64,000 nucleotides of DNA. Source: Fodinicola acaciae (GTDB lineage: Bacteria; Actinomycetota; Actinomycetes; Mycobacteriales; HKI-0501). Location of the stretch: positions 1,860,001-1,924,000 of the forward strand of contig NZ_WOTN01000002.1 of the NCBI RefSeq assembly GCF_010993745.1, read 5' to 3'. Below the pieces are notes generated by a model. That model saw nothing but the letters and a program-made list of their open reading frames with translations, had not been told where the DNA came from and did not search any database. Positions within the stretch are counted from its first letter, which is position 1, and every line of letters begins with the position of its first letter. Shown here one piece after another: positions 17,937 to 25,021 of this stretch. A program made the position numbers and the translations under genes.

Positions 17937-20729
17937 TCAGACCAGCGCCGCCGGTGGGCGGTCGGTGCCGAGGTCGGAGTAGGCGTGCGCCAGATGGCGC
18001 TCGGCCACCGCCCGCTCCAGCGGCTCCTCGGTCGCCTGCGCGATGGCGAGCGCTCGCCGGTGGTGCTTCAGCGCCACCACCGGCGCGCCGTGCCGGCGCG
18101 CCAGCTCGCCGAGGTTGTTCAGGATTTCGGCCTGGTGGCTGCGGTTTCCGGTGTCGCGCGCGACACCGTAGGCGTGCTGGAAATGCGTGCCGGCGCGCCG
18201 GTCGTCGCCGAGCAGCCGGTGCGTACGACCGAGGCCGTTGAGCGCATTGCTTTCCACGTAACGGTTTCCGCTGCGCCGCGCGACCATCAGCGCCTGTTCG
18301 AACCTGCTCTGCGCGTGGCCGAGCTGTCCGATGCGGCTGTGGATCAGGCCGAGGTTGGTCAGCGCGTGCGCCGCCACGTACGGATTTCCGGTGCGGCGCG
18401 CCAACATCAGGCCCTGCCGCGAGCAGTGCAGCGCGTTCTCGTCGTCGCCGGCGAACCAGTACGCGATGCCAAGGCCGACCAGGCACCGTCCGTGCAGGTC
18501 GTGGTCGCCGATCTCGCCGGCGACCGCCACACTTTTCCGTGCCGTGGCAACGGCTTCGTCGTATCCGCCCAGACGCGCGGTGGCGGCGCTGAGATGGTGC
18601 AACGCATATCCTTCGACGTCCAAGTCGCCTTGCTGCTGAGCGATGTCGATCGCGTGGCGAAAATCGGCGGCGGCGCGTGCGTAGCGGCTCCAGCGCCAAT
18701 GCACGACGCCGAGCGCGTGTGCCGCATGTGCCTCACGGCCGTCCGCGGTCAAAGCGGCTTTGTGCAATGCGTGTGCGTCGTCGTTGTAGCCGCGGAGGTC
18801 GAGAAAGTGCCACAGCGTACGGGAAAGCTCGCCGAGCGCGCGCCGGTCGCGGTGTGCCAGCGCGAGGAGGTTGTGGCGTTCGGTTTCCAACCATGTCATC
18901 GCCTGCGCATAGCCGTCCACCGAGTCGTGCGAGGAGATGGCGTCGGAAGCCGCGGCGGCGGACCGCAGGTAATAGCCGGCGATCCGGTGCAGGCCAGCGT
19001 CATGGTCGCCCGCGTGCTCGGCGGCGTACAGGCGGACCAGGTCGTGCATGCCGAAGCGGCCCGGTTTGGCTTCCTGCAACAGATGTATGTCCACGAGCTG
19101 CCGCAGGCACGCGCGCGTCGGACCGGTCGGCAGGTCGAGCAGGCTCGCCGCGGCCGGCACCCCGACGTCCGGGCCAGGCGCCAGGGCCAGCTGCCCGAGC
19201 AGTGCGGCGGCAGGTGGGTCGAGCGCCTCGTACGAGCTGGACAACACCGTCCGGACGTTCGCGGTCAGGTCAGCGCTGGCCAGCACGTCCAACCGGTCCG
19301 ACGCTTTTTCCAGGTCCGCGGCCAAACTCGCCAGCGAGAAGTCCGGCTGGCTGTGCAGCCGCGCGGCGACGATCCCCAATGCGAACGGCAGTCGCGCGCA
19401 TCGCCGCACCAGTGCCGCCGCGGCCGCCGGTTCGGCGGCCAACCGTTCGCGGCCGACAGCGCGCTCCAGTACTGCCACCGCGTCGGCCATGTCGACGACG
19501 TCCAACGGCAGCTGCAGCGCGTTGTGACCGCTCACCAAACCGGTCAACCTGTTGCGGCTGGTGACGATGACGGTGCAGCCGTCGACACCCGGCAGCAGCG
19601 GAGCGACCTGACCGCTGTCACGAGCGTTGTCCAACACGACAAGGATCCGTTTGCCGGCCACCAGGCTGCGAAACAGGCCGGTCTGGGCCTGTGGCTCGGC
19701 CGGAATCGCGGTGACGCCGAGACCTTCCAGGAGCGCGCGCATCGCCGCGGCTGCCGGCAACGGCGGATCGGCCGCGGAGAAACCGTGCAGCTGGACGAAA
19801 AGTTGTCCGTCCGGGAAGTCGTCGAGGTGGTCGTGCGACCAGCGCAGCGCGAGCCAGGTCTTGCCGACTCCGGCGCCGCCGGTCACCGCGATCACCGAGC
19901 TGTCACTCCGCTGCACCAGCCCGGTCAGGCCGGCCAGATCCTTGGCGCGGCCGGCAAACCTGCGCGGTGCGGCCGGCAGTTGACGCGGCACCAGGCCGGT
20001 CGCCGCAGGTCCTGGCGGCGATTTCTCGGCCAGCACGTCGGCGTACGCCTGCCGCAGCGCCGGCGTAGGATCCGTGCCGAGCTCGGTGGCGATCTGACGG
20101 CGTACGGCCTCATAACACCGTAATGCCTCGGCCGACCGTCCGTTCTGGTGCAGCAGAAGGATCAGCCTGACCCACAATGACTCACGCAACGGATATCGCG
20201 CGGTGAGCGCGGTCAGCTCGGCGATCAACGGCGTGCCGACACCTTTGGCGATATCGATGTCGATGCGGCGTTCGACCGCGGTCAGATAGCGCTCGACCAG
20301 CAGCGGACTCGCGGTGCGGCGCAGCCATTCGCACTCCAGGCCGTCGAATGGCTCGCCTCGCCACAACGCCAACGCCTCGGCCAGCACGGCGCGCTCGGTG
20401 GTGGATTGGTCAAGCAAGGCGCCAAAACGCAGGGCGTCCACGGCGTACGGACTGACATCCAGCCGAAAACCCTCCGGCCGGGTCTGGACGTACGGTCCGC
20501 GCAACGCCGTCCGCAGTCGGGTCGCGTACGTCTGCAGGGTCCGCCGCGGACTGACCGGCGGCCGCTCGTCCCAGACGATCTCGGTCAGCCGGTGGACCGA
20601 CACGGACCTGCCGGCCGACATCGCCAGCGCGGCCAGCATCGCCGGCAACCGGCCGGCCGGCAGCGGCACCGGTCGACCATCGACCTCGACCTCGACCGGG
20701 CCGAGCACATTTATCGTTATCGCAGGCAC
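17937..20729 (-). CDS. SARP/AfsR-type transcriptional regulator with NB-ARC and TPR domains
   Basis: This 930-residue regulator has an OmpR-like DNA-binding domain (1-95) and a bacterial transcriptional activation domain (100-235). An NB-ARC ATPase follows, with Walker A GGAGVGKT (284-291) and LVVLDN as Walker B. From about 620 to the end come tetratricopeptide repeats (for example AYWFAGDDENALHCSRQGL, AQSRFEQALMVARR). Members activate secondary-metabolite or developmental genes. GTG 20729 with GGAGGAG upstream is used; it starts the domain at the usual ITINVLGPVEV. It is divergent from the CHAP hydrolase by 206 bp, so it may control the two cell-wall hydrolases (inference). Confidence 0.88.
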   Translation of the reverse strand: MPAITINVLGPVEVEVDGRPVPLPAGRLPAMLAALAMSAGRSVSVHRLTEIVWDERPPVSPRRTLQTYATRLRTALRGPYVQTRPEGFRLDVSPYAVDALRFGALLDQSTTERAVLAEALALWRGEPFDGLECEWLRRTASPLLVERYLTAVERRIDIDIAKGVGTPLIAELTALTARYPLRESLWVRLILLLHQNGRSAEALRCYEAVRRQIATELGTDPTPALRQAYADVLAEKSPPGPAATGLVPRQLPAAPRRFAGRAKDLAGLTGLVQRSDSSVIAVTGGAGVGKTWLALRWSHDHLDDFPDGQLFVQLHGFSAADPPLPAAAAMRALLEGLGVTAIPAEPQAQTGLFRSLVAGKRILVVLDNARDSGQVAPLLPGVDGCTVIVTSRNRLTGLVSGHNALQLPLDVVDMADAVAVLERAVGRERLAAEPAAAAALVRRCARLPFALGIVAARLHSQPDFSLASLAADLEKASDRLDVLASADLTANVRTVLSSSYEALDPPAAALLGQLALAPGPDVGVPAAASLLDLPTGPTRACLRQLVDIHLLQEAKPGRFGMHDLVRLYAAEHAGDHDAGLHRIAGYYLRSAAAASDAISSHDSVDGYAQAMTWLETERHNLLALAHRDRRALGELSRTLWHFLDLRGYNDDAHALHKAALTADGREAHAAHALGVVHWRWSRYARAAADFRHAIDIAQQQGDLDVEGYALHHLSAATARLGGYDEAVATARKSVAVAGEIGDHDLHGRCLVGLGIAYWFAGDDENALHCSRQGLMLARRTGNPYVAAHALTNLGLIHSRIGQLGHAQSRFEQALMVARRSGNRYVESNALNGLGRTHRLLGDDRRAGTHFQHAYGVARDTGNRSHQAEILNNLGELARRHGAPVVALKHHRRALAIAQATEEPLERAVAERHLAHAYSDLGTDRPPAALV

Positions 20730-20935
20730 GGCTCCTCCGTGGGGGGTGCGCAACCCAAGCCGGCAGGCAGATCTACCATAACGCCACCACCGGCGCGCTC
20801 GATCAGAAAATGTTCGCAGTGATGAGATTTGTTGCTGTTTTGCCGAAATGTCGGTGAAGCTGTTGTGAAGCAGTTGAGAAGACACCGGCTGTTTCGATCT
20901 CTCCGGCTTTCTGTCTGAGCGCGGAGGAGGAATGG

Positions 20936-22360
20936 ATGTACGGACGAATCAGCCGGCGGTTGCTGCTTGCGTTAGCTCTGGCCGTCGTGATGGCGCTGGC
21001 GCTGACTGGCCAGCAGCATGCCGCGTACGCGGCGGTGACGCGGGCCGGGATCGCGGAGACGGCACGCGCCGAGGTCGGTTATGTGGCGTCGCCGAGCCAA
21101 TGCCAGAAATACGGACCGCTGTGCGACGACTGGTGCGCGATGTTCGCCACCTGGGTCTGGGAACACGCCGGTGTCGCCGGTGCGCCACGATCGACGTACG
21201 TGGCGACCGCCATCGGCAGCTGGGGTGTGAACAACGGCCTGTTCAAACGGCGTCCGGCCGGCGGCGTCGGTTCGCCGCTGCCGGGTGACCTCGCCGTCTA
21301 CGGCGAGCCGGGTTCCGGGCAGGGCGGCCACGTCTCGGTCGTCTACTCGGTGAACACCAACGGGACGATCACCACGATTGACGGAAACTACAACAACGCC
21401 GTGAAAATGCGCGAGATCAACCCGGCGACCGCCAGGGCCGGCGCGCGTAACGTCCTCATCTCCGGATATGTCGCGCCGCCCGGCGTGACCGACGAACCCT
21501 TGCCGCCGAGCGGAAACGTCGGCGATTTCTCCGGCGACGGATATTCCGACGTGCTCGGGGTCGACGGCGCCGGGATGTTGTGGTTCTACGGCAACAACTC
21601 CAGGTCCAGCGGGCAGTTCGTGCCGAGCCTGGCCGTGCGTGCCGGCATCGGAAACGGCGGCTGGCAGTCGTTCCGACGTGTCGTTTCCGCCGACTTCTCC
21701 GGCGACCGCTACGCCGACGTACTCGGTGTCGATGGCGCTGGAATGCTGTGGTATTACGGCAACAACTCGATGAGCAGTGGCTCTTTCGTGCCGAGCCTGG
21801 CCGCGCGTACGCAGGTCGGCAACGGTGGCTGGCAGAACTTCACGTTCTTCCAGGCCGGTGATTTCTCCGGTGACGGCTTCGCCGACGTACTGGCCGTCGA
21901 CTCAGCGGGCATGTTGTGGTTCTATCCCAACAGTTCCAAGAGCACCGGCTCTTTCGTGCCGAGTCTTGGCGCGCGGGTGCAGGTCGGCAACGGCGGCTGG
22001 CAGAACTTCAGGTTCCTCCAGGTTGGTGATTTCTCCGGTGACGGCTTCGCCGACGTACTGGCCGTCGACGCCAACGGACAGCTGTGGTTCTATGGCAACA
22101 ACTCGATGAGCACCGGCACCTTCGTGCCGAGCCTGGCCGCCCGTGTCCAGGTTGGCAACGGCGGCTGGCAGAACTTCTCGTTCATGCAGGCGGCCGACTT
22201 CTCCGGCGACCACTTCGCCGACATCCAGGCGGTCGACGCCAACGGACAGCTCTGGTATTACCCCAATTCCTCGATGAGCAGCGGCCATTTCGTCCCGAGC
22301 CTCGGCGCGCGCGTCCAGGTTGGCAACGGTGGCTGGCAGTCGTTCACGTTCTTCGCCTGA
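20936..22360 (+). CDS. Secreted CHAP-domain peptidoglycan hydrolase with five-unit tachylectin-like propeller
   Basis: This 474-residue exported protein has a Sec signal peptide (1-33), then a CHAP domain (about 36-180) with catalytic C67 in DDWCAMFATW and H132 in GGHVSVV. CHAP enzymes cut peptidoglycan peptides or the amide bond. From about 193, five repeats of roughly 56 residues follow. Each has DFSGD-xx-DV near the start, LWFY in the middle and VGNGGW near the end. The IGNGGW-x-xFxF pattern is that of tachylectin-2, a five-bladed propeller that binds GlcNAc, so five units would close one propeller. GGAGGAGG lies six bases before ATG 20936. The next gene starts ten bases downstream. Confidence 0.88.
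   Translation: MYGRISRRLLLALALAVVMALALTGQQHAAYAAVTRAGIAETARAEVGYVASPSQCQKYGPLCDDWCAMFATWVWEHAGVAGAPRSTYVATAIGSWGVNNGLFKRRPAGGVGSPLPGDLAVYGEPGSGQGGHVSVVYSVNTNGTITTIDGNYNNAVKMREINPATARAGARNVLISGYVAPPGVTDEPLPPSGNVGDFSGDGYSDVLGVDGAGMLWFYGNNSRSSGQFVPSLAVRAGIGNGGWQSFRRVVSADFSGDRYADVLGVDGAGMLWYYGNNSMSSGSFVPSLAARTQVGNGGWQNFTFFQAGDFSGDGFADVLAVDSAGMLWFYPNSSKSTGSFVPSLGARVQVGNGGWQNFRFLQVGDFSGDGFADVLAVDANGQLWFYGNNSMSTGTFVPSLAARVQVGNGGWQNFSFMQAADFSGDHFADIQAVDANGQLWYYPNSSMSSGHFVPSLGARVQVGNGGWQSFTFFA
21526..22357 (+). repeat. Five propeller-unit repeats, first array
   Basis: Five in-frame units of about 165-168 bp encode the C-terminal propeller of the CHAP protein. Units begin GNVGDF, VSADF, QAGDF, QVGDF and QAADF in that order. 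The same order of unit-specific starts recurs in the array of the next gene, so the arrays are related unit by unit. Confidence 0.85.
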
Positions 22361-22370
22361 TAGGAAAACC

Positions 22371-23783
22371 ATGAAGACTCTTCTGAGATGGCCGCTCGTG
22401 GCAGCGGTCACGACGGTGTTGCTCGCCGCCGTCGCGGCGCCGGCCTACGCGGACGCGAACACGGATTACATCAACGCGGCCGCGCCGTCGGCGCAGCAGG
22501 TGCAGGCGGAGTTTCGCGTGCCGGCCTCGGTCGCGATCGGCCAGTCGGCCCTGGAGTCCAACTGGGGTCGCAGCAAGCTGACGGTGAACGACAGGAACTA
22601 TTTCGGGTTCAAATGCACCTCGGCTGGCGATCCGGGACCGATCGCGACCGGCTGCCACGACTATCCGACGCAGGAGTGCGGACCGTCCGGTTGCCAGACG
22701 GTGCACGCGTACTTCCGTGTCTACGCCACCGCCGCCGACTCGTTCCGCGACTATGGCCGTCTGCTGGCCACGTCGTCGCGTTACGCACCGGCGTTTCAGT
22801 ACGTCGACAATCCGGACCAGTTCATCCGCGAGGTCGCCAAGGCTGGCTATGCCACCGATCCTGACTATGCCAGCAAAGTCATCGGCCTGATGCAGACCTA
22901 CGACCTCTACCGGTTCAACCAGTTGCGCCACTCCGGCGCAGTGAGCGACTTCTCCGGCGACGGATATTCCGACGTGCTCGGCGCGGACAGCGCCGGAATG
23001 CTCTGGTATTACCCCAACAGCTCCAAGAGCACCGGCGCGTTCGTGCCCGCACTCGGTGCGCGTACGCAGGTCGGCAACGGTGGCTGGCAGTCGTTCCAAC
23101 GTGTCGTCTCCGCCGATTTCTCCGGTGACGGTTACGCGGACGTGCTCGGCGTCGACTCCGGCGGACAGTTGTGGTTCTATGGCAACACTTCCAGGACCAC
23201 AGGCACCTTCGTGCCCAGCCTCGGCGCGCGGGTGCAGGTCGGAAATGGGGGATGGCAGAGCTTCAGGTTTGTCCAGGCCGGCGATTTCTCCGGTGACGGT
23301 TACGCGGACGTACTCGCCGTCGACTCGGCCGGACAACTGTGGTTCTATCCCAACAACTCCAAGAGCACCGGCTCCTTCGTGCCGAGTCTGGGCGCGCGGG
23401 TGCAGGTCGGAAATGGGGGATGGCAGAACTTCACGTTCTTCCAGGTCGGTGACTTCTCCGGTGACGGTTACGCGGACGTACTCGCCGTCGACTCGGCCGG
23501 ACAACTGTGGTTCTATCCCAACAACTCCAAGAGCACCGGCTCCTTCGTGCCGAGTCTCGGTGCGCGCGTGCAGGTCGGAAATGGGGGATGGCAGGGCTTC
23601 AGGTTCTTCCAGGCGGCCGATTTCTCCGCCGACGGCTACGTCGATGTGCAGGCCGTCGACGGCAACGGCCAGCTGTGGTTCTACCCGAACAGTTCCAAGA
23701 GCAGCGGCGGGTTCGTACCGGCACTCGGTGCGCGGACGCAGGTCGGCAACGGTGGTTGGCAGTCCTTCCGGTTCTTCACCTGA
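22371..23783 (+). CDS. Secreted glucosaminidase with five-unit tachylectin-like propeller
   Basis: This 470-residue exported protein has a signal peptide (1-27, AYA-DA). A GH73-type N-acetylglucosaminidase domain (about 30-185) follows, with catalytic E62 in ALESNWGRS and NYFGFKC, FRVYAT and SFRDYGRLL typical of LytG/FlgJ-like enzymes. Residues 190-470 are five propeller units nearly identical to those of the upstream CHAP protein. ATG 22371 has AGGA upstream and lies ten bases after the previous stop, so the two form an operon. Together they would cut both the glycan (glucosaminidase) and the peptide (CHAP) of peptidoglycan. A strong terminator follows. Confidence 0.88.
   Translation: MKTLLRWPLVAAVTTVLLAAVAAPAYADANTDYINAAAPSAQQVQAEFRVPASVAIGQSALESNWGRSKLTVNDRNYFGFKCTSAGDPGPIATGCHDYPTQECGPSGCQTVHAYFRVYATAADSFRDYGRLLATSSRYAPAFQYVDNPDQFIREVAKAGYATDPDYASKVIGLMQTYDLYRFNQLRHSGAVSDFSGDGYSDVLGADSAGMLWYYPNSSKSTGAFVPALGARTQVGNGGWQSFQRVVSADFSGDGYADVLGVDSGGQLWFYGNTSRTTGTFVPSLGARVQVGNGGWQSFRFVQAGDFSGDGYADVLAVDSAGQLWFYPNNSKSTGSFVPSLGARVQVGNGGWQNFTFFQVGDFSGDGYADVLAVDSAGQLWFYPNNSKSTGSFVPSLGARVQVGNGGWQGFRFFQAADFSADGYVDVQAVDGNGQLWFYPNSSKSSGGFVPALGARTQVGNGGWQSFRFFT
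22946..23780 (+). repeat. Five propeller-unit repeats, second array
   Basis: Five units of about 165 bp. Units 3 and 4 are almost identical in DNA, and the stretch around GTGCAGGTCGGAAATGGGGG recurs exactly at about 23220, 23399 and 23568. This points to recent homogenisation. Unit order matches the first array. Confidence 0.85.
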
Positions 23784-24081: not shown

Positions 24082-25021
24082 CCGCCATCGAAGTGGAAGG
24101 GGAATGGTCGGCCGATCTCGGATATGCGGCGGGTGGTGGAGGGGATCGCGTGGCGGTTTCGGACCGGGGCGCCGTGGCGGGATATGCCGGAGCGTTTCGG
24201 GCACTGGAACACGATTTATGGCTGGTTCTGGGACTGGTCGAAAGACGGTACCTGGGATCGAGTGCTGCAGGAGGTGCGGAAACAGGCCGCCAGCGCTGGT
24301 GACCTGGAGTGGGTGGTGTCGGTGGACGGGTCGATCGTGCGTGTCCATCAGCACGGCGCAACCCTCGCGCGCGACACGAGTGATGCAGGTGACCACACAG
24401 GGGGCTCTACAGGGGGCTCTACAGGGGGCTCTACAGGGGGCTCTACAGGGGGCTCTACAGGGGGCTCTACAGGGGGCTCTGTCGAATTACAAGAAAACCC
24501 GCGACCCCGGACCAGGTGAACCGGCCGGTCACGGAATCGGTAAGTCCAGGGGTGGCCTGACGACGAAGTTCCACGTCGCGGCCGACCTCAAGCAGCGACC
24601 GTTGGGGCTGGTGGTCACCGGCGGACACGCCGCGGACTCCACGTTCATGCACGTGGTACTGGAGACCATCAGCATCTCCAATGGCCGGCCCGGCCGGCCG
24701 CGGACCAGGCCGGACCGGGTGATCGCCGACAAGGCGTACACCGGCAAGCCGTGCCGCGACTACCTGGCCCGGCGCGGCATCAAAGCCACCATCCCCGAAC
24801 GTGGGGACCAAAAACGTGGTCGCGCCAACCGCGGGTCCGCCGGCGGCCGACCTCGCACTTTCGATCCAGAAATCTACAAAGGCCGCAACGTCGTGGAACG
24901 CTGCAACAACAAACTCAAACAATGGCGCGGCATCGCCATGAGAACAGACAAAACCGCACGCAGCTACCTCGCCGGACTCACCCTCGCCGCCACGCTCATC
25001 TGGACCAAATCACTAGTTTAG
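24082..25021 (+). pseudogene. IS5-family transposase, broken
   Basis: The N-terminal part is in one frame: RRVVEGIAWRFRTGAPWRDMPERFG to VVSVDGSIVRVHQHGA, with the first catalytic Asp in VDGS. The frame then ends downstream of the repeat block. The C-terminal part is in the +1 frame: KSRGGLTTKFHVAADL, a second acidic site in VIADKAYTG, and the Glu-bearing VERCNNKLKQWRGIAMRTDK. A DDE enzyme could be made only by +1 frameshifting, for instance on the runs of five G in the tandem repeats. The 5' end is blocked by a TGA at 24079-24081, with no typical LTDEQW start. Confidence 0.75.
24397..24480 (+). repeat. Seven exact 12-bp tandem repeats inside the transposase
   Basis: The unit ACAGGGGGCTCT is repeated seven times without a mismatch. 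In one frame it reads Thr-Gly-Gly-Ser and in the next Gln-Gly-Ala-Leu, so both transposase frames stay open through it. Each unit carries a run of five G. Confidence 0.95.

What the first reader, a model, noticed from the sequence alone, without database searches (positions are those of the whole stretch)
20936..23783. Twin peptidoglycan hydrolases with matched five-blade GlcNAc-binding-type propellers
Two adjacent genes pair a CHAP domain and a glucosaminidase domain with the same five-unit array. Units carry VGNGGW plus an aromatic strand, the tachylectin-2 signature, and five units is exactly one such propeller. The nth unit of one array matches the nth of the other, so the complete propeller was copied, not built twice. 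One enzyme cuts glycan and the other peptide, and both could dock on the same sugar. A SARP regulator lies divergent. This looks like an uncharacterised two-enzyme wall-degrading module for lysis, development or predation.
Basis: partly seen in the sequence, partly recalled or inferred. Interest (0 to 1): 0.68.

Follow-up and report, generated by a model that had tools for sequence, protein, structure and literature searches.

The report
Twin wall-cutting enzymes sharing one lectin
Two neighbouring soil-bacterium genes make cell-wall-cutting enzymes, one predicted to cut peptide links and one the sugar chains, that carry nearly the same sugar-binding propeller, and the same kind of matched enzyme set recurs elsewhere, suggesting paired enzymes aimed jointly at one wall sugar.

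Summary
Gene A (20936-22360, CHAP) and gene B (22371-23783, GH73 glucosaminidase) lie 10 bp apart. Each ends in five 56-residue units, 79% identical between the genes. The units are VCBS/FG-GAP type, not Pfam Tachylectin. The best structural match is the teichuronic-acid-binding propeller of the umbrella-toxin lectin UmbA4 (Z 22.4), then tachylectin-2 (Z 16.0).

The pair is one case of a wider pattern. The same genome holds three more such pairs, each with its own repeat domain, 91-100% identical within the pair. I found 17 clusters in 11 actinomycete genomes. All 17 combine a peptide-bond enzyme (CHAP, M23, NlpC/P60-like) with a glycan enzyme (GH73, Rpf, SLT_3, GH184-like). Where CHAP domains are 54-88% identical, their terminal domains are at most 36% identical or unalignable in 13 of 15 comparisons, yet match their neighbour's at 59-100%. 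In one Nonomuraea the shared 690 bp are identical between the two genes, with sharp edges. One shared lectin type also sits on three UmbA proteins.

Best reading: secreted two-enzyme wall-lytic modules guided by a shared lectin to one wall glycopolymer. Use against competitors is favoured but unproven. The GlcNAc ligand is not supported. No activity was tested.

The parts
20936..22360 (+). Gene A: CHAP-domain wall hydrolase with C-terminal five-unit propeller (474 aa), probably secreted
   Evidence: ORF; PF05257 E 3.8e-10 and PF13517 E 2.9e-21; N-terminal hydrophobic signal-like stretch read by eye
21128..21388 (+). CHAP catalytic domain of gene A (residues 65-151); Cys67, His132 and Asn151 present
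   Evidence: Pfam stretch; the three residues are invariant in the six sequences aligned; their catalytic roles are recalled
21524..22357 (+). Propeller array A, units A1-A5 (starts 21524, 21692, 21860, 22028, 22196; 168 bp period)
   Evidence: FG-GAP_3 stretches
22371..23783 (+). Gene B: GH73 glucosaminidase with C-terminal five-unit propeller (470 aa), ATG start, probably secreted
   Evidence: PF01832 E 9.9e-33 and PF13517 E 6.3e-27; GsmA model NF038016 236.1 bits, cut-off 240
22482..22907 (+). GH73 catalytic domain of gene B (residues 38-179); Glu62 in ALES aligns with FlgJ
   Evidence: Pfam stretch; FlgJ alignment; residue number; the catalytic role is recalled
22947..23780 (+). Propeller array B, units B1-B5 (starts 22947, 23115, 23283, 23451, 23619; 168 bp period)
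   Evidence: AlphaFold2 model of 22923-23780 and fold matches
17937..20885 (-). Divergent SARP-type regulator (BTAD, NB-ARC, TPR); the true start is probably near 20729
   Evidence: the start is my inference; link to the module is only by position

Best explanation
Genes A and B encode a secreted two-enzyme wall-lytic module. A (CHAP) is predicted to cut peptide or amide bonds and B (GH73) the glycan strand. Both carry the same VCBS-type propeller lectin, which docks them on the same wall glycopolymer so that both bond types are cut at one spot. The propeller was copied as a whole domain between neighbouring genes. In this genome and others such modules exist in several versions, each with its own lectin-like domain, and the genes of a module mostly change that domain together, through domain copying or gene conversion. 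Shown by sequence: the enzyme families, the matched domains, their joint replacement and, in Nonomuraea, recent homogenisation. Inferred: secretion, activity, ligand class and synergy. The use I favour, at about 0.45, is lysis of other bacteria with a given surface glycopolymer, because one genome holds four lectin versions and such lectins also occur on umbrella toxins.
For: Both enzymes and arrays. Fold: UmbA4 bound to S. griseus teichuronic acid is the top match (Foldseek E 6e-9; Z 22.4, 2.8 A over 258 residues, next best Z 16.0). Sequence profile: UmbA1 1.6e-12 ahead of tachylectin-2 2.2e-6. Three further pairs in the same genome, shared domain 95, 91 and 99-100% identical. 17 clusters in 11 genomes, 17 of 17 with one peptide-bond and one glycan enzyme. 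Of 15 CHAP pairs with at least 53% identical catalytic domains, 13 have terminal domains at most 36% identical or unalignable. A domain's best match is in its own cluster for 29 of 36 proteins; the catalytic part's, for 0 of 35. Nonomuraea SBT364: 690 identical bases, divergent within a few bases on both sides, while the pair has an orthologue in N. antri. Lectin-first searches: 7 of 7 genes in matched clusters, 2 of 2. Three UmbA proteins carry a lectin 43-47% identical to that of a hydrolase triplet.
Against: No activity, binding or secretion was measured. The model is of moderate confidence (pLDDT 75.8, four sequences) and ring closure was not seen. In G233c and G379 the domains follow orthology, not the neighbour, so homogenisation is not universal. 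In the window pair itself synonymous sites are nearly randomised (0.54 against 0.37), so recent conversion is not shown there. One NlpC-like enzyme with a repeat domain in the same genome has no matched neighbour (L183), nor has the Pilimelia CHAP enzyme (L047) or L171. The source genome has no clear UmbA (only E 7e-4), and I saw no immunity gene, though I did not search for one. Clusters were found by searching for these enzymes and opening part of the hits, so frequencies are not population estimates. In the whole-genome searches of groups of genomes only the best few candidates per genome were scored (7-10).
Confidence: 0.62

Rival explanations
1. Self-wall remodelling: the pair acts on the producer's own wall in sporulation, spore release or germination, and the propellers hold the enzymes on the producer's own glycopolymers. 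Different pairs would serve different stages. (This shares the co-targeting part of the best explanation and differs in the use.)
For: Gene B is close to the GsmA sporangiospore-maturation model (236.1 bits, cut-off 240). Rpf-type partners in other clusters belong to a family linked to resuscitation and germination (recalled). A SARP regulator lies divergent.
Against: Four different lectin-like domains on equivalent enzyme pairs in one genome; only G000 of 101 genomes searched has a full-length match to B; lectin versions are rare (3 of 296 and 1 of 246 genomes); one version is shared with umbrella toxins. These fit foreign targets better.
Confidence: 0.3
2. Duplication by-product: a tandem duplication followed by catalytic-domain replacement left two similar propellers, and gene conversion between neighbours keeps them alike with no selection for a common ligand.
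For: Long direct repeats close together convert readily (general knowledge); Nonomuraea SBT364 shows perfect identity; G240, G224 and G233d are 98-99.6% identical.
Against: 17 of 17 clusters join complementary bond specificities. In the window pair 79% protein identity persists although synonymous sites are nearly randomised, which points to purifying constraint. Some partners are divergent or about 1-4 kb apart (L119, L179, L113).
Confidence: 0.15
3. GlcNAc-binding tachylectin-2-type propellers that dock directly on peptidoglycan glycan.
For: GNGGW and phmmer matches to tachylectin-2 (1.3e-8 for array B); Z 16.0 to 1tl2 and about 15.8 to GlcNAc-binding fungal lectins.
Against: UmbA4 is far ahead (Z 22.4); Pfam gives FG-GAP_3 and no Tachylectin match for this pair; unit length is 56.
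Confidence: 0.12

Closest known systems
Umbrella-toxin lectin proteins UmbA (Streptomyces; 8w20, 9oee; PMC11062931, PMC13274773)
   Same: Propeller lectin at the C-terminus behind an unrelated N-terminal module, several diversified versions per genome; best fold and profile match for this array; one lectin type is shared by UmbA and a hydrolase triplet
   Different: UmbA has a trypsin-like domain that docks on UmbB in a toxin particle; here the lectin is fused to wall hydrolases, no clear UmbA was found in this genome, and lectins are matched in neighbouring genes
Tachylectin-2 (1tl2)
   Same: GNGGW motif and propeller fold
   Different: Shorter units (recalled); PF14517 does not match this pair, though it matches the third pair and Phytohabitans
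PLL lectins of Photorhabdus (solved, e.g. 6rfz)
   Same: The shared domain of the fourth pair of this genome matches PLL2 at 4.8e-61; they also appear among the fold matches of array B (Z about 13-15)
   Different: Stand-alone lectins (recalled); here fused to a CHAP enzyme and a GH184-like muramidase side by side
GsmA sporangiospore maturation hydrolase (NF038016)
   Same: GH73 domain, 236.1 bits
   Different: Below the equivalog cut-off of 240; the match covers only profile positions 154-315 of 316; a propeller follows
Choline-binding wall hydrolases of pneumococcus (CbpD with CHAP, LytB with GH73; recalled, not looked up)
   Same: CHAP and glucosaminidase enzymes aimed by a common module at a teichoic-acid feature; used in lysis of related cells
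   Different: One module type for the whole genome, genes scattered, solenoid repeats; here each neighbouring set has its own lectin
Rpf-LysM-M23 proteins (22 of 24 Rpf loci opened, domains read by eye)
   Same: Glycan and peptide cutting combined
   Different: One polypeptide with LysM, not two genes with a shared propeller

Membership tests
CHAP hydrolase (PF05257) | Match above the Pfam cut-off with catalytic Cys and His | tested here: met
   40.6 bits, cut-off 26; Cys67, His132, Asn151 invariant in six aligned sequences
GH73 glucosaminidase (PF01832) | Match above the Pfam cut-off with conserved Glu | tested here: met
   113.9 bits, cut-off 30.2; ALES aligned with FlgJ
VCBS/FG-GAP propeller (PF13517) | Repeat match above the Pfam cut-off | tested here: met
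   76.2 and 94.4 bits, cut-off 26.9
Tachylectin (PF14517) | Match to the Pfam Tachylectin model | tested here: not met
   Absent from the lists at E up to 1 for both proteins
Tachylectin-2-like fold | Closed five-bladed propeller | tested here: inconclusive
   Z 16.0 to 1tl2, but ring closure not inspected and pLDDT 75.8
UmbA | N-terminal trypsin-like domain | tested here: not met
   N-terminal domains are CHAP and GH73
UmbA-type wall-glycopolymer lectin | Propeller fold of UmbA4 | tested here: met
   Z 22.4, 2.8 A over 258 residues, on a model of moderate confidence
UmbA-type wall-glycopolymer lectin | Binding of teichuronic or teichoic acid | not testable with these tools
   Needs binding assays
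GsmA (NF038016) | Score above the equivalog cut-off | tested here: not met
   236.1 against 240 bits
AfsR (NF053617), for the neighbour | Score above the equivalog cut-off | tested here: not met
   412.7 against 1430 bits

The most novel reading that the evidence does not exclude
Lectin-guided binary lysins: a recurrent, so far undescribed kind of actinomycete antibacterial weapon, in which a peptide cutter and a glycan cutter share one lectin version that is swapped and homogenised in both genes together, drawing on the same lectin repertoire as umbrella toxins to follow hypervariable wall glycopolymers of competitors.
Probability: 0.35. Interest if true: 0.82.

Novelty: new variant of a known kind. 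Interest (0 to 1): 0.64.

Why it matters
Each part is known: wall hydrolases, propeller lectins and concerted evolution (its long-lasting form is reported as very rare in prokaryotes; PMC6053082, start of abstract seen in the listing). What is new is that neighbouring, non-homologous wall enzymes carry one set-specific lectin-like domain that changes in both genes together. If the reading is right, a genome lists its target glycopolymers as lectin versions, each backed by a matched pair of cutters. That gives a direct test of what these secreted VCBS propellers bind, links wall hydrolases to umbrella toxins, and offers ready-made targeted lysins.

Tried and rejected
Rejected: (1) that the two five-unit arrays arose independently, because they are 79% identical and the same kind of matched set recurs elsewhere. 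(2) That the pair is phage-borne: a scan of viral contigs with the array alignment gave 41 pattern matches and no relative. (3) A riboswitch upstream: one sub-threshold match at E 0.35 elsewhere in the 15 kb searched. (4) Simple orthology of this pair: of 101 genomes only G000 has a match over the full length of B; of the 18 others with a match, 12 match in the GH73 part and 8 in the repeats (G062 and G069 both, at separate places); G097's match runs over 146-445.

Led nowhere: a second AlphaFold2 job, on the Nonomuraea shared domain, gave pLDDT 67.1 and generic propeller matches with TM (query) below 0.5 in the 50 rows shown, so I do not claim its fold. Of 24 long-frame Rpf loci of genus g64 opened, 22 read as Rpf-LysM-M23, one as Rpf-LysM, and one (L149) has a repeat domain and is paired. 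My first repeat regex and first pair script missed several sets, found later. The CHAP profile list holds 129 matches; I examined 38. Of those, 10 have a repeat domain after the CHAP domain and 9 of the 10 have a matched neighbour; the exception is L171. Of the nine best GH184-like matches, all examined, five carry a repeat domain and all five are matched; two (L112, L114) share an NlpC-like domain with neighbours instead, and two have none. Paper searches for GsmA: no paper held all three terms, and the six listed of 20 do not hold the word.
Full report
OBSERVATION. Gene A (20936-22360) has a CHAP domain and gene B (ATG 22371-23783) a GH73 glucosaminidase domain, both Pfam matches above cut-off. 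The gap is 10 bp, so co-transcription is likely (inference). Each ends in five units of 56 residues; the arrays are 79% identical in protein and in DNA. The colinear pairing of units is the best of 120 on DNA and third on protein. B3 and B4 are 93% identical, and array A has a two-unit period. So the whole array was shared between the genes, but copying within arrays blurred the unit-to-unit match. Fourfold sites agree at 0.54 (0.37 expected), so the event is probably old.

WHAT THE PROPELLER IS. Pfam assigns FG-GAP_3, with no Tachylectin match. Sequence searches find tachylectin-2 through GNGGW; UmbA1 (8w20) is found with gene B and array B but not with gene A at E up to 1. A four-sequence profile puts UmbA1 first (1.6e-12) and tachylectin-2 second (2.2e-6). 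The AlphaFold2 model of array B (four sequences, pLDDT 75.8, pTM 0.79) matches UmbA4 bound to teichuronic acid best (Z 22.4), with tachylectin-2 at Z 16.0. That VCBS, FG-GAP and tachylectin-2 propellers form one supercluster and that new propellers are amplified from single blades is known (PMC9218822, title and passages). Two UmbA proteins are reported to bind species-specific teichuronic-acid-like wall polymers, and 41 UmbA terminal-domain families, 12 of them five-bladed propellers, are listed (PMC13274773: abstract, sections 12 and 13, passages). Term searches of the two umbrella papers show no mention of CHAP-domain hydrolases.

THE SAME GENOME. Searching it with array A gave two more adjacent gene sets: CHAP with SLT_3 (six units, 95% identical) and an NlpC-like enzyme with a GH184-like muramidase (five units, 91%). 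A fourth, CHAP with a GH184-like muramidase, shares a domain of the PLL lectin family (PLL2, 4.8e-61): 98.8% over a 343-residue alignment, and a 337-residue query matches both copies at 100%. The GH184-like label rests on profile matches to the solved muramidases 8b2h (1.1e-14) and 8b2e (3.4e-11) (PMC10394673, title and passages). 'NlpC-like' in the third pair and in L179 has no Pfam match; it rests on 32-36% identity to the NlpC/P60 proteins of G224 and G463.

OTHER GENOMES. The one named scan gave Phytohabitans maris, two Nonomuraea, Pilimelia and a distant MAG match. Phytohabitans and both Nonomuraea have matched neighbours; Pilimelia has none that I found. Partners are CHAP, M23, NlpC/P60 or NlpC-like on one side and GH73, Rpf, SLT_3, GH184-like on the other; 17 of 17 have one of each. 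The CHAP domain of G403 was found by my profile but was not listed by Pfam at E up to 1e-4. Finding one enzyme type was by selection; finding its complement was not. Not every shared domain is proven to be a propeller: those of G463, G379, G233b, G233c, G224 and Nonomuraea have no Pfam propeller match in my calls, and I call them lectin-like by their repeats.

JOINT REPLACEMENT. Among 12 CHAP enzymes, 15 pairs have catalytic domains at least 53% identical. In 13 of 15 the terminal domains are at most 36% identical or not alignable, whereas each enzyme's domain matches its neighbour's at 59-100%. The two exceptions are orthologous clusters (the two Nonomuraea; G233c with G379). Best domain match lies in the own cluster for 29 of 36 proteins, best catalytic match for 0 of 35; the seven misses are G233c and G379 (four), G215 (two) and one N. 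antri protein. In Nonomuraea SBT364 the 230-codon domain is identical base for base between the two genes, with 4 identical bases before it and divergence right after the stop. In N. antri the first half is 99% identical and the rest about 82-92%. The catalytic parts of the two species are 86-90% identical and in the same order. That is best explained by gene conversion within an inherited pair. A caution: SBT364 is a scaffolded draft and a perfect repeat could be an assembly error; G240, G224 and G233d (98-99.6%) are independent cases.

LECTIN-FIRST SEARCHES. The lectin of the fourth pair occurs in 3 of 296 genomes at E up to 1e-20, in 7 genes, all in matched clusters. That of L149 occurs in 1 of 246, two adjacent genes. 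That of L118 occurs in 4 of 246, seven matches: the triplet, three proteins with an UmbA trypsin-like domain (best E 2.2e-49, 7.1e-44 and 2.3e-49 to UmbA1 or UmbA4; the second also matches UmbB), and one NlpC-like single gene of the source genome. Only the best 7-10 candidates per genome were scored in these three searches.

MECHANISM. Two enzymes with complementary cuts and the same lectin should meet on the same wall patch. A change of lectin in one gene would be of little use unless the other follows, which copying between neighbours provides. Several lectins per genome point to several targets, hence antagonism over self-remodelling; but GsmA resemblance and Rpf partners keep development alive as a rival. 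Ligand, activity and secretion are inferred.

VERDICT. A real feature, rightly spotted; the GlcNAc/tachylectin reading is replaced by an UmbA-like wall-glycopolymer lectin, and the pair is one instance of a recurrent architecture. Paper searches listed no description of it; they cover an open-access library, and I saw only the listed papers.

Noticed in passing
L012 5538-7637 (own genome, contig C4): A serine/threonine kinase with a transmembrane-like stretch (by eye) followed by an FG-GAP-type repeat domain, possibly a sensor using the same kind of lectin.
   Followed up: no
L112 5350-8756 and L114 5764-9380: An NlpC-like domain is repeated, up to 98% identical, in three neighbouring genes: behind a muramidase, as second copy in an NlpC-like protein, and behind a helix-turn-helix-like protein (by eye). 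The shared copies read TDGSGY where the first copy reads TDCSGY, so they may be inactive binding modules.
   Followed up: partly
window 24124-25021 and 24397-24480: Transposase-like reading frames (by eye) just downstream of gene B with a perfect seven-copy 12-bp tandem repeat near the frame junction.
   Followed up: no
L119 3108-4760: An SGNH-type hydrolase (by eye) next to the matched CHAP/Rpf set carries a related repeat domain at 30% identity.
   Followed up: no
L183 3913-5553 (own genome, contig C2): An NlpC-like enzyme (by eye) with a repeat domain and no matched neighbour in the 10 kb fetched; an unpaired counter-example.
   Followed up: partly
L180, L181, L182 (own genome): Secreted glycosidase-like proteins, one resembling a GH20 hexosaminidase (by eye), with lectin repeats related to those of the fourth pair, unpaired.
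   Followed up: no
L185 3689-5785: A protein that matches UmbB (8.1e-14) at its N-terminus and UmbA (7.1e-44) after it, apparently a fused UmbB-UmbA with a lectin.
   Followed up: no
L186 8467-10003: Two neighbouring reading frames near an UmbA gene are 95% identical over 174 residues.
   Followed up: no
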